Under the pieces are notes generated by a model that ran no database searches, was not told where the DNA came from, and saw nothing but the letters and a program-made list of their open reading frames with translations. This document shows positions 49,969 to 52,504 of a stretch of 64,000 bases of DNA, in pieces. This stretch comes from Pantanalinema sp. (GTDB lineage Bacteria > Cyanobacteriota > Sericytochromatia > S15B-MN24 > UBA4093): contig DATNQI010000050.1 of NCBI GenBank assembly GCA_036704125.1, positions 1-64,000 of the forward strand. Direction: 5' to 3'. Positions within the stretch are counted from its first letter, which is position 1. Each line of letters opens with the position of its first letter. The translations under genes were made by a program, and so were the position numbers.

Positions 49969-50793
49969 TTATTTGCGAGCCGCCCTTTGATCCCAGTCGC
50001 TGGGGAACTTGTAGCCTGCGAACTTTTGCCGGGCCCAGCCCTGGAAGGCGGGCGAGCGATAGGCGGCGATCACGTCCTTGACCCAGGGCTGGGAGCGATC
50101 GGCGCTCCGGATGGCCCCCCAGTTCACGTAGGCGTCGCTCTTCTCCTGGTAGAGCGCCTCGGTCAGGCGGATGCCGGAGCTGGTCGCGTAGTTTCCGTTG
50201 ATGACGGAAAAGTCCACGTCGGCGCGCGAGCGCGGCAGCTGGGCGGCCTCGAGCTGGACGAGCCGCACCCGCTTCGGGTTCTCGGCGATGTCGTGCAGGG
50301 AGGCCCGGAGGGGATCGATCCCGGGCTTCAGCTTCAGCCAGCCGAGATCCTTCAGCAGGACCAGCGCCCGCGCCATGTTGGTCGGGTCGTTCGGCACGGC
50401 CACGGTGGTGCCTTGCTTGGCCGAAGCGAGCGCTTTCTGGCGTCCCGCGTACAGCCCGAGGGGCGCGGTCGGGACCTGGAAGGCCCCCGAGAGCGAAAGG
50501 CCTCGCTCGCGAACGAAGCCGTCCAGATAGGGCTTGTGCTGGAAGACGTTGACGTCCAGCGCCCCCTCGGCGAGGGCGAGGTTCGGCCGGACGTAGTCGG
50601 TGAACTCGACCACGCGCACCTTGTAGCCTCGCTTTTCGAGCTGCGGCTTGATCGAGAAGCGCGCCATGTCCCCGAAGTCGCCCACGCTGGTGCCGATGAC
50701 GATTTCCTTCTTGCTGGGGGCCGCCTGGGCGGCGTGGGCGATCAGCAGCCATCCGAGGCTCGAAGCGACGAGGGTCTTGAGCAGGGTCTTCAC
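49969..50793 (-). CDS. metQ: Methionine ABC transporter substrate-binding protein
   Basis: A 274-residue NlpA/MetQ-family protein with a Sec signal peptide (LVASSLGWLLIAHAAQA, cleavage near residue 24). The mature part follows the type: IVIGTSVGDFGDM, VEFTDYVRPNLALAEGALDVNVFQHKPYLD. There is no lipobox cysteine in the signal region, unlike most MetQ. It captures methionine for the MetNI transporter. It is the last gene of metNIQ. Confidence 0.92.
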   Translation of the reverse strand: MKTLLKTLVASSLGWLLIAHAAQAAPSKKEIVIGTSVGDFGDMARFSIKPQLEKRGYKVRVVEFTDYVRPNLALAEGALDVNVFQHKPYLDGFVRERGLSLSGAFQVPTAPLGLYAGRQKALASAKQGTTVAVPNDPTNMARALVLLKDLGWLKLKPGIDPLRASLHDIAENPKRVRLVQLEAAQLPRSRADVDFSVINGNYATSSGIRLTEALYQEKSDAYVNWGAIRSADRSQPWVKDVIAAYRSPAFQGWARQKFAGYKFPSDWDQRAARK

Positions 50794-50811: not shown

Positions 50812-51489
50812 TCAGCGCTTGTCCAGCTTGGCGGACAGCCGGTTTCCGAGCCACTGGATCACCTGGACCACGACGACGAGCAGCGCCACCAGGACGAGCA
50901 TGACGTCGGTCTGGTAGCGGTAGTAGCCGTAGCGCACGGCCAGGTCCCCGATCCCTCCGCCACCGACGACACCGGCCACCGCCGAGTAGGAGAGGAAGCT
51001 GACGCACAGGATGGTCAGCCCCGAGACGAGGCCTGCGCGCGCCTCGGGCAGAAGGACCTTGAGGACGATCTGCACCGGGCTCGCGCCCATCGCTCGCGCG
51101 GCTTCGACGACGCCGCGGGGCACTTCCTTCAGGCTCTGCTCGACGAGGCGGGCCAGGTAGGCGATCGCCGCGAGGGAAAGCGGCACGGCTGCGGCCAGCG
51201 GGCCGATGCTGGTGCCCGTCACCAGGCGGGTGAAGGGCACCAGCGCGACCATCAGGATGATGAACGGGAACGAGCGGACCAGGTTCACGCTCCACTCGAG
51301 CAGGGCGTTCAGGAGGCGCCGCTCGAGGAGCTGCTGCGGCTGGGTGAGATGGAGCAGCACGCCGAGCGGTCCGCCCACCAGGACGGCGGCCAGGAGGCCG
51401 ATGGCGAGCATCAGGGCGGTCTCTTGCGAGGCTTGCAGGATCTCGGGCGCAAGCAGGGTCAGTTTTTCCAGGGTTGCCATTTCTTCCAC
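50812..51489 (-). CDS. metI: Methionine ABC transporter permease
   Basis: A 225-residue permease with five helices. The EAA-loop region EVPRGVVEAARAMGASPVQIVLKVLLPEA and the FPFIILMVALVPFTRLVTGTSIG segment match MetI. GTG at 51489 is listed; ATG at 51480 may be used instead. It follows the ATPase gene after 3 bases and precedes metQ after 18 bases. Confidence 0.92.
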   Translation of the reverse strand: MEEMATLEKLTLLAPEILQASQETALMLAIGLLAAVLVGGPLGVLLHLTQPQQLLERRLLNALLEWSVNLVRSFPFIILMVALVPFTRLVTGTSIGPLAAAVPLSLAAIAYLARLVEQSLKEVPRGVVEAARAMGASPVQIVLKVLLPEARAGLVSGLTILCVSFLSYSAVAGVVGGGGIGDLAVRYGYYRYQTDVMLVLVALLVVVVQVIQWLGNRLSAKLDKR

Positions 51490-51492
51490 GAC

Positions 51493-52227
51493 CTAGACCT
51501 CCAAGAGCGATTGGGCGAGGACGGTGGCGGGGCGTGCCTCGCCGTCTTGGACCGCCAGCACCTCCACGACGCGGCCCTGATCGAGCAGGGCCGCCCGGTG
51601 GCAGATCGCGCGCACCACGTGCATGTCGTGGGTCACCAGGACGATGGTGACGCCGAAGTCGCGGTTGATCGCTTTCAGGCAATCGAGAATGCTGCGGGTG
51701 GTCCGGGGATCGAGGGCCGAGGTGGGCTCGTCGGCCAGGATGACCTTGGGGCGCGGCGCCAGGGCGCGCGCGATGCCCACGCGCTGCTTCTGGCCGCCCG
51801 ATAGCTGGGCGGGGTAGTGGTCGGCGCGATCGCTCAGCTGAACGATTTCCAGGCATTCGGCGACGCGGGCCTGGATCGCGGGCTTCTTCCAGCCGGCGAT
51901 CTCGAGCGGAAAGGCGATGTTGGCTGCCACGGTGCGGTTCGAAAGCAGGTTGAACTGCTGGAAGACCATCCCGATTTCCCGCTGCGAGCGGCGCAGGGCC
52001 GCCGTCGAGAGCGCGGTGAGATCCTCGCCGTCGATGGTGACGATCCCGGTGTCGGGGCGCTCGAGCAGGTTCATCACGCGCAAGAGGGTGGACTTGCCCG
52101 CGCCGGAGTAGCCGATGAGGCCGAAGATCTCGCCGGCCGCGACGGTGAGCGAGGTCTGGGCGAGGGCCTCGAAGTCGCCCCCGCCGGGGTGGCCGTAGCG
52201 TTTGCTGATGCCTTCCAGTCGAATCAT
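51493..52227 (-). CDS. metN: Methionine ABC transporter ATP-binding protein
   Basis: A 244-residue ATPase. Walker A GYSGAGKST, the Q-loop VFQQFNLL, the signature LSGGQKQRVGIARAL, Walker B VILADEPTSALDP and the switch histidine in VTHDMHVV are present. The ATG at 52227 has GGAGGG upstream and is the conserved start; the frame is open further upstream into the leader. Most MetN carry a C-terminal regulatory ACT-like domain of about 100 residues that binds methionine; this one is short (244 residues) and lacks it. Confidence 0.93.
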   Translation of the reverse strand: MIRLEGISKRYGHPGGGDFEALAQTSLTVAAGEIFGLIGYSGAGKSTLLRVMNLLERPDTGIVTIDGEDLTALSTAALRRSQREIGMVFQQFNLLSNRTVAANIAFPLEIAGWKKPAIQARVAECLEIVQLSDRADHYPAQLSGGQKQRVGIARALAPRPKVILADEPTSALDPRTTRSILDCLKAINRDFGVTIVLVTHDMHVVRAICHRAALLDQGRVVEVLAVQDGEARPATVLAQSLLEV

Positions 52228-52247
52228 GGGTCCCTCCCAATTGCAAA

Positions 52248-52271
52248 GCCCGCCGTGCTTGCGCGGCGGGC
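52248..52271 (-). terminator. Candidate attenuator hairpin in the metN leader
   Basis: On the minus strand a perfect 8-bp GC-only stem (52271-52264 with 52255-52248) and an 8-base loop is followed by TTTGC. It lies between the SAM-II-like aptamer and the metN ribosome-binding site, as expected for transcriptional control. Confidence 0.55.
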
Positions 52272-52320
52272 CTGGAAGGTGGACGTCCATGAGAAACCGG
52301 ACACGACCATGGGAGGTCGT

Positions 52321-52366
52321 CCACGCTTTAGCAGATTACGCCCGCAAGCTGTGTTCAAATCGGCGT
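52321..52366 (-). ncRNA. SAM-II-like riboswitch upstream of metNIQ
   Basis: On the minus strand, stem P1 pairs ACGCC (52366-52362) with GGCGU (52342-52338). Loop 1 contains GAUUUGAAC and GCUUGCG, like the SAM-II consensus GAUUUAA...UUGC. GCUAAA, the SAM-II 3' core, is at 52332-52327. The bases after it, GCGUG (52326-52322), pair with CAC-A-GC in loop 1 (53-51 and 49-48) with one bulged A, giving the pseudoknot. The joining segment before GCUAAA is shorter than in typical members. The gene downstream is the methionine importer, which fits S-adenosylmethionine control. Identity is by eye. Confidence 0.65.
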
Positions 52367-52504
52367 TCTATTCGGTTGTCAGCTGAGTCCAAGTGAAGCG
52401 CGCTTCGCGCGAATTGTCAACCGTTCTGTTTGCGCAATCGCGCTCATAGTGCGCAATAGAGGCATGGTATGATCGGGATGTACTTGCTTAGAGGAACCTT
52501 ATCC

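What the first reader, a model, noticed from the sequence alone, without database searches (positions are those of the whole stretch)
52228..52366. Probable SAM-II riboswitch controlling methionine import
The minus-strand leader of metNIQ has P1, the GAUUU and UUGC loop elements, GCUAAA and a 5-pair pseudoknot with the following GCGUG. SAM-II is known mainly from Alphaproteobacteria and Bacteroidetes; here the joining segment is about 5 bases shorter and a GC hairpin with TTTGC follows, suggesting a variant that works by transcription termination.
Basis: partly seen in the sequence, partly recalled or inferred. Interest (0 to 1): 0.72.

Follow-up and report, generated by a model that had tools for sequence, protein, structure and literature searches.

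The report
Compact SAM-II riboswitch before metNIQ
The leader of this methionine-import operon carries a shortened version of a known RNA sensor for S-adenosylmethionine, apparently moved together with the operon from a betaproteobacterium into a non-photosynthetic relative of cyanobacteria, where it probably turns methionine import off when the cell has enough.

Summary
The minus-strand leader of metNIQ holds P1 (ACGCC/GGCGU), GAUUUG, UUGC, a 5-nt joining segment, GCUAAA and a 5-pair pseudoknot with one bulged A. Rfam's SAM-II model (RF00521) aligns to it end to end but scores only 15.4 bits against a cut-off of 36, probably because the joining segment is short. A model built from 42 betaproteobacterial relatives, window excluded, finds it at 58.7 bits, E about 9e-13, once in the genome. 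The same short element precedes metN in 43 Neisseriales loci. Long-joint sisters precede metX across the order, and several pass the RF00521 cut-off. P1 shows compensatory changes.

The host is a non-photosynthetic Cyanobacteriota lineage. MetQ was absent from 58 relatives; MetN nests inside Neisseriales with full support; both flanks are host-like. So operon, promoter and riboswitch were probably acquired together. The aptamer kept 42-43 of 46 columns while flanking leader and third codon positions fell to about 50%, which implies selection.

Likely mechanism: an OFF switch. Without SAM, the aptamer strand GCGGGC traps the terminator arm GCCCGC; with SAM, the terminator forms and may also hide the ribosome site. 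SAM binding is inferred, not shown. Known class, compact variant, new phylum.

The parts
52392..52420 (-). Promoter: TTGACA (52420-52415), 17 nt, TTCACT (52397-52392)
   Evidence: Same TTGACn-17-TTCAAT layout upstream of the element in Neisseriales relatives; the simple consensus scan did not pass it
52362..52366 (-). P1, 5' strand ACGCC
52356..52361 (-). GAUUUG, third strand of the triplex in the SAM pocket (by homology)
52348..52353 (-). Pseudoknot P2, 5' strand CAC(A)GC with A52350 bulged
52344..52347 (-). UUGC, pocket and P2 pairs with GCUAA
52338..52342 (-). P1, 3' strand GGCGU
52333..52337 (-). Short joining segment AAUCU (5 nt; 3-7 in the metN subtype, mostly 10-13 in the metX subtype)
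52322..52332 (-). GCUAAA core and pseudoknot 3' strand GCGUG
52321..52367 (-). Whole aptamer as matched by model R1
   Evidence: 58.7 bits, E 9.1e-13
52340..52345 (-). Antiterminator outer helix, upstream strand GCGGGC (overlaps P1 3' strand)
   Evidence: Fold of the transcript cut at the terminator 5' arm
52319..52324 (-). Antiterminator inner helix, upstream strand GUGGAC (overlaps the pseudoknot 3' strand)
52279..52284 (-). Antiterminator inner helix, downstream strand GUCCAC
52274..52279 (-). CCUUCC, can pair with the ribosome site GGGAGG
   Evidence: prediction only
52239..52273 (-). Terminator hairpin AGGCCCGCCG-CGCAAGCA-CGGCGGGCUU with weak U-tract; its 5' arm holds GCCCGC (52271-52266)
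52233..52238 (-). Ribosome site GGGAGG
51493..52227 (-). metN, ATPase of the methionine importer (244 aa, no C-terminal regulatory domain)
50812..51489 (-). metI, permease
49969..50793 (-). metQ, binding lipoprotein

Best explanation
A SAM-II riboswitch of a compact, short-joint subtype typical of Neisseriales metNIQ leaders, acquired with its promoter and operon by a non-photosynthetic Cyanobacteriota. Shown: the conserved aptamer, P1 and pseudoknot with covariation, the shared promoter and terminator layout, the betaproteobacterial affinity of the genes, and selection on the aptamer. Inferred: SAM binds as in SAM-II and closes P1 and the pseudoknot. This takes GGGCG and GCGUG away from an antiterminator (GCGGGC with GCCCGC, GUGGAC with GUCCAC), so the GC hairpin forms and stops transcription; CCUUCC may then also cover the ribosome site. 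Low SAM leaves the antiterminator in place and methionine import is made.
For: Model R1 without the window: 58.7 bits, E 9.1e-13, single match in the genome. RF00521 aligns end to end at 15.4 bits; sister metX leaders pass its cut-off at up to 52 bits. Same element in front of metN in 43 Neisseriales loci. Structure cells paired 94.7% against 88.8% shuffled and 24-54% slid; P1 pair C-G to U-A in 4 rows without intermediates. Aptamer 42-43 of 46 conserved, downstream leader about 55%, third codon position about 51%. Terminator arm GCCCGC kept; it pairs with the aptamer in cut transcripts. MetN inside the Neisseriales clade at 100/100; flanks host-like.
Against: Below the RF00521 cut-off. No ligand data. 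The window's joint keeps only two of the A residues of its relatives. The U-tract UUUGCAAUU is weak and the terminator scan finds nothing. The antiterminator is only moderately better than shuffled controls (window: 18/200 and 6/200). Many core positions never vary and so give no covariation.
Confidence: 0.82

Rival explanations
1. Same aptamer, but control is mainly at translation: the SAM-bound fold lets CCUUCC cover the ribosome site GGGAGG, and the hairpin is not an efficient terminator in this host.
For: Weak U-tract; predicted pairing of the ribosome site is 0.98 with the aptamer masked and 0.68 in the antiterminator state, means 0.94 and 0.64 over 32 leaders; some SAM-II relatives of metX put the ribosome site directly in the pseudoknot (L099, L100, L101, L103).
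Against: The GC hairpin is present in nearly all relatives, several with long U-tracts; its 5' arm stays complementary to the aptamer.
Confidence: 0.25
2. A riboswitch of the SAM-V class or one with another preference (SAH, methionine).
For: SAM-V has a near-identical core (PMC6061858); the short joint departs from SAM-II.
Against: No match to RF01826 up to E 10; the chain of relatives leads to RF00521; all core letters match SAM-II; genes are methionine genes.
Confidence: 0.06
3. A decayed remnant that came with the operon and no longer regulates.
For: Only one copy, alien host, the joint altered, weak U-tract.
Against: The aptamer is far more conserved than the rest of the leader and silent sites; the diverged spacer still offers both antiterminator helices.
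Confidence: 0.08
4. Assembly artefact: a Neisseriales fragment joined to a cyanobacterial contig.
For: MetNIQ is about 66-73% identical to Neisseriales and MetQ is missing from 58 relatives; the genome is a 102-contig assembly.
Against: RnhA 71%, Lon 55%, ClpX 83% and HflX 60% are closest to the same-family genome, on both sides of the operon; GC3 is even; MetN is on a long branch (0.72), not a close copy.
Confidence: 0.04

Closest known systems
SAM-II (SAM_alpha, RF00521; metA element, PMC1273637)
   Same: P1, GAUUUG, UUGC, GCUAAA, pseudoknot, promoter just upstream, terminator downstream, methionine genes
   Different: Joint 5 nt instead of 11; scores below the Rfam cut-off; in front of metNIQ; in a Cyanobacteriota genome
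metXZ RNA element of betaproteobacteria (Leyn 2014, PMC4239095)
   Same: Its described layout (pseudoknot of regions 1-4 and 2-6, terminator, GC-rich regions 3-4 proposed to form an antiterminator, metX leaders) fits the long-joint relatives, several of which pass RF00521
   Different: Published without a link to SAM-II; the paper calls metNIQ unregulated by known regulators in betaproteobacteria. Its alignment figure could not be read here, so identity is inferred
SAM-V (RF01826)
   Same: Closely similar pseudoknot and pocket (PMC6061858)
   Different: No sequence-model match; SAM-V is translational and marine
Bp2_287 Burkholderia sRNA (RF02424)
   Same: Matches the opposite strand of related leaders
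   Different: Annotated as a small RNA on the other strand; all matches here are below its cut-off

Membership tests
SAM-II (RF00521) | Score at or above the Rfam gathering cut-off of 36 bits | tested here: not met
   15.4 bits; short-joint relatives 16-20 bits. This is a detection threshold rather than a structural feature; homologues pass it
SAM-II (RF00521) | P1 stem directly before GAUUUG and closing after UUGC | tested here: met
   5 pairs in the window; compensatory changes across relatives
SAM-II (RF00521) | Pseudoknot between the P1 loop and the 3' strand after GCUAAA | tested here: met
   CAC(A)GC with GCGUG; outer pair shows A-U, U-A, U-G, C-G
SAM-II (RF00521) | Conserved pocket letters GAUUU, UUGC, GCUAAA | tested here: met
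   All identical to the consensus and invariant in A1; note that the relatives were gathered with a pattern that includes these letters
SAM-II (RF00521) | Joining segment of about 11 nt along P1 (length typical of the family consensus) | tested here: not met
   5 nt in the window, 3-7 nt in the metN subtype; P1 is also shorter. A variable, not a core, feature in my judgement
SAM-II (RF00521) | Location upstream of methionine or SAM genes | tested here: met
   metNIQ
SAM-II (RF00521) | Selective SAM binding | not testable with these tools
   needs in-line probing or calorimetry
SAM-V (RF01826) | Match to the SAM-V model | tested here: not met
   absent among matches up to E 10

The most novel reading that the evidence does not exclude
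The short-joint metN element is a distinct SAM-II subclass with its own joint geometry and a dual platform that stops transcription and hides the ribosome site, and it has crossed phyla as a working promoter-riboswitch-operon unit.
Probability: 0.3. Interest if true: 0.55.

Novelty: new variant of a known kind. Interest (0 to 1): 0.45.

Why it matters
It gives a candidate regulator to betaproteobacterial metNIQ, which a published survey left unexplained. It probably identifies that survey's orphan metXZ element as SAM-II. It shows that the public SAM-II model misses a compact subtype. It also puts a SAM-II riboswitch in the Cyanobacteriota by horizontal transfer, a case where selection on an RNA switch after transfer can be measured.

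Tried and rejected
RF00521 on the whole genome gave nothing, and the control genomes were silent too, so that result is uninformative. A loose pattern over 386 genomes of the phylum matched 40 other genomes; none of those matches has the GGGC that follows UUGC in the element, so I treat them as chance. Free folding of full leaders nearly always gives the terminator, so it cannot test the switch; folding the transcript cut at the 5' arm was used instead. Weak matches in the leader to Thr_leader, a group II intron domain and a CRISPR repeat were dropped as chance hits to GC-rich hairpins. Some relatives' start codons were mis-chosen by my script, so a few leaders are cut short and their terminators missed. 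Literature searches for SAM-II with cyanobacteria, and for riboswitches in Sericytochromatia, listed no paper that describes such a case in its title or abstract.

Full report
What is there. On the minus strand, between the start codon of metN (52227) and the divergent rnhA gene (52469), lies a leader with a promoter-like TTGACA-17-TTCACT, a small pseudoknot, a spacer hairpin, a GC hairpin and a ribosome site GGGAGG. The three genes are metN, metI and metQ by Pfam and by best NCBIfam model, though below NCBIfam's cut-offs.

Rfam. No family reaches its cut-off in the window. With a permissive search, the best match in the leader is RF00521 (SAM-II) at 15.4 bits, spanning the whole model with the core letters in place and a gap in the joining segment. 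SAM-V is not among the matches up to E 10.

Relatives. MetQ has close relatives (63-74%) only in Neisseriales in the collection searched. In 43 of these loci the stretch before metN carries the same element, with a joint of 6-7 nt. Ten Neisseriales genomes searched whole all have it, and six of them have a second copy with a joint of 12-13 nt elsewhere. The long-joint form occurs across the order: 144 of 250 genomes match a loose pattern, against 12 genomes for the reversed control. Many of these precede metX, and several pass the RF00521 cut-off, up to 52 bits. The Neisseriales long-joint copies reach 32 bits, the short-joint ones 16-20, the window 15.4. This forms a continuous series from accepted SAM-II to the window.

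Statistics. A covariance model of 42 relatives without the window (R1) finds the element at 58.7 bits, E about 9e-13 in the window and 5e-11 in the genome, with no second match. E-values are rough. On that alignment the stated structure has 94.7% of cells paired against 88.8% in shuffles and 24-54% when slid. P1 pair 3-33 is C-G in 36 and U-A in 4 rows with no intermediate; the outer P1 pairs and the outer pseudoknot pair also change on both sides. Several core pairs never vary and say nothing.

Host and transfer. Genomes of the same phylum carry photosystem II genes; the window's own class members tested do not. It is therefore a non-photosynthetic Cyanobacteriota class, which I take to be Sericytochromatia (inference). 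MetQ is missing from 58 relatives. MetN sits inside the Neisseriales clade with 100/100 support, on a long branch, its exact place unsure. Flanking RnhA, Lon, ClpX and HflX are closest to the same-family genome among those compared, and rnhA, lon and clpX lie together there without metNIQ. Horizontal transfer with later amelioration is the simplest reading. The promoter layout came along. The aptamer keeps 42-43 of 46 columns, while the rest of the leader is at about 55%, the upstream 70 bases at about 46% and third codon positions at about 51%. That contrast is evidence of function after the transfer.

How it works. In the transcript cut at the end of the terminator 5' arm, the predicted fold pairs aptamer GCGGGC (52345-52340) with GCCCGC (52271-52266), and GUGGAC (52324-52319) with GUCCAC (52284-52279). 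The first strand includes part of the P1 3' strand; the second overlaps the pseudoknot 3' strand. SAM binding and antitermination are thus mutually exclusive by sequence. In relatives the inner partner is for example CCCAUGC or CCACAGC, the latter like the aptamer's own pseudoknot strand. The arm GCCCGC is kept nearly throughout. Shuffled controls are only moderately exceeded (window 18/200 with the aptamer shuffled, 6/200 with the spacer shuffled), so the antiterminator rests more on conservation than on energy. The U-tract in the window is weak. With the aptamer masked, the ribosome site is predicted paired (0.98), less so in the antiterminator state (0.68); the mean over 32 leaders goes the same way (0.94 and 0.64), though not every leader does. 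I therefore favour termination, with ribosome-site hiding as a likely second layer.

Known and new. SAM-II is an established class, reported from Alpha-, Beta- and Gammaproteobacteria and Bacteroidetes (PMC1273637, PMC2258182, PMC2704228), often with terminators. Leyn 2014 (PMC4239095) found SAM_alpha only in two alphaproteobacterial orders, described a separate metXZ element in betaproteobacteria and found no regulator for metNIQ there. The data here suggest that metXZ is SAM-II and that the metNIQ regulator of Neisseriales is its short-joint form; the first point is an inference because the published alignment could not be read. The window adds a new phylum by transfer. I file it as a new variant of a known kind, with ligand binding untested.

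Noticed in passing
L077, L084, L085, L088, L090, L091, L097 (for example L088 1495-1548 and 1642-1695): Two SAM-II-like pseudoknots in tandem, the first followed by a terminator, the second (GAGUUAAU or GAUUUAAU in place of GAUUUG) before an ORF for an orphan protein of about 100 aa beginning MYDC; a MATE-like exporter gene follows in several (by eye). Both copies match R1.
   Followed up: partly
L095, L096, L112, L181, L183, L184 and others: RF02424 (Bp2_287, a 'Burkholderia sRNA') matches the strand opposite to these SAM-II leaders, below its cut-off, so the family may be a strand-flipped description of the riboswitch leader.
   Followed up: partly
L123 1018-1122 and 1495-1549: A SAM-I/IV riboswitch (61 bits, above cut-off) and a SAM-II-like element about 400 bases apart in one locus; [quoted passage not shown]
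   Followed up: no
window 51493-52227: MetN is only 244 aa against 343 for the family model, so it lacks the C-terminal regulatory domain; Neisseriales relatives align over the same 243 residues.
   Followed up: partly
L112 1501-1555: A metX SAM-II with a 23-nt joint that holds a small GGGGAACCUCCC hairpin insert.
   Followed up: no
L102, L175: Short-joint copies with P1 based on GCC/GGC plus U-A pairs and a joint of only 3-5 nt; L102 lies before metN and has no evident terminator.
   Followed up: partly
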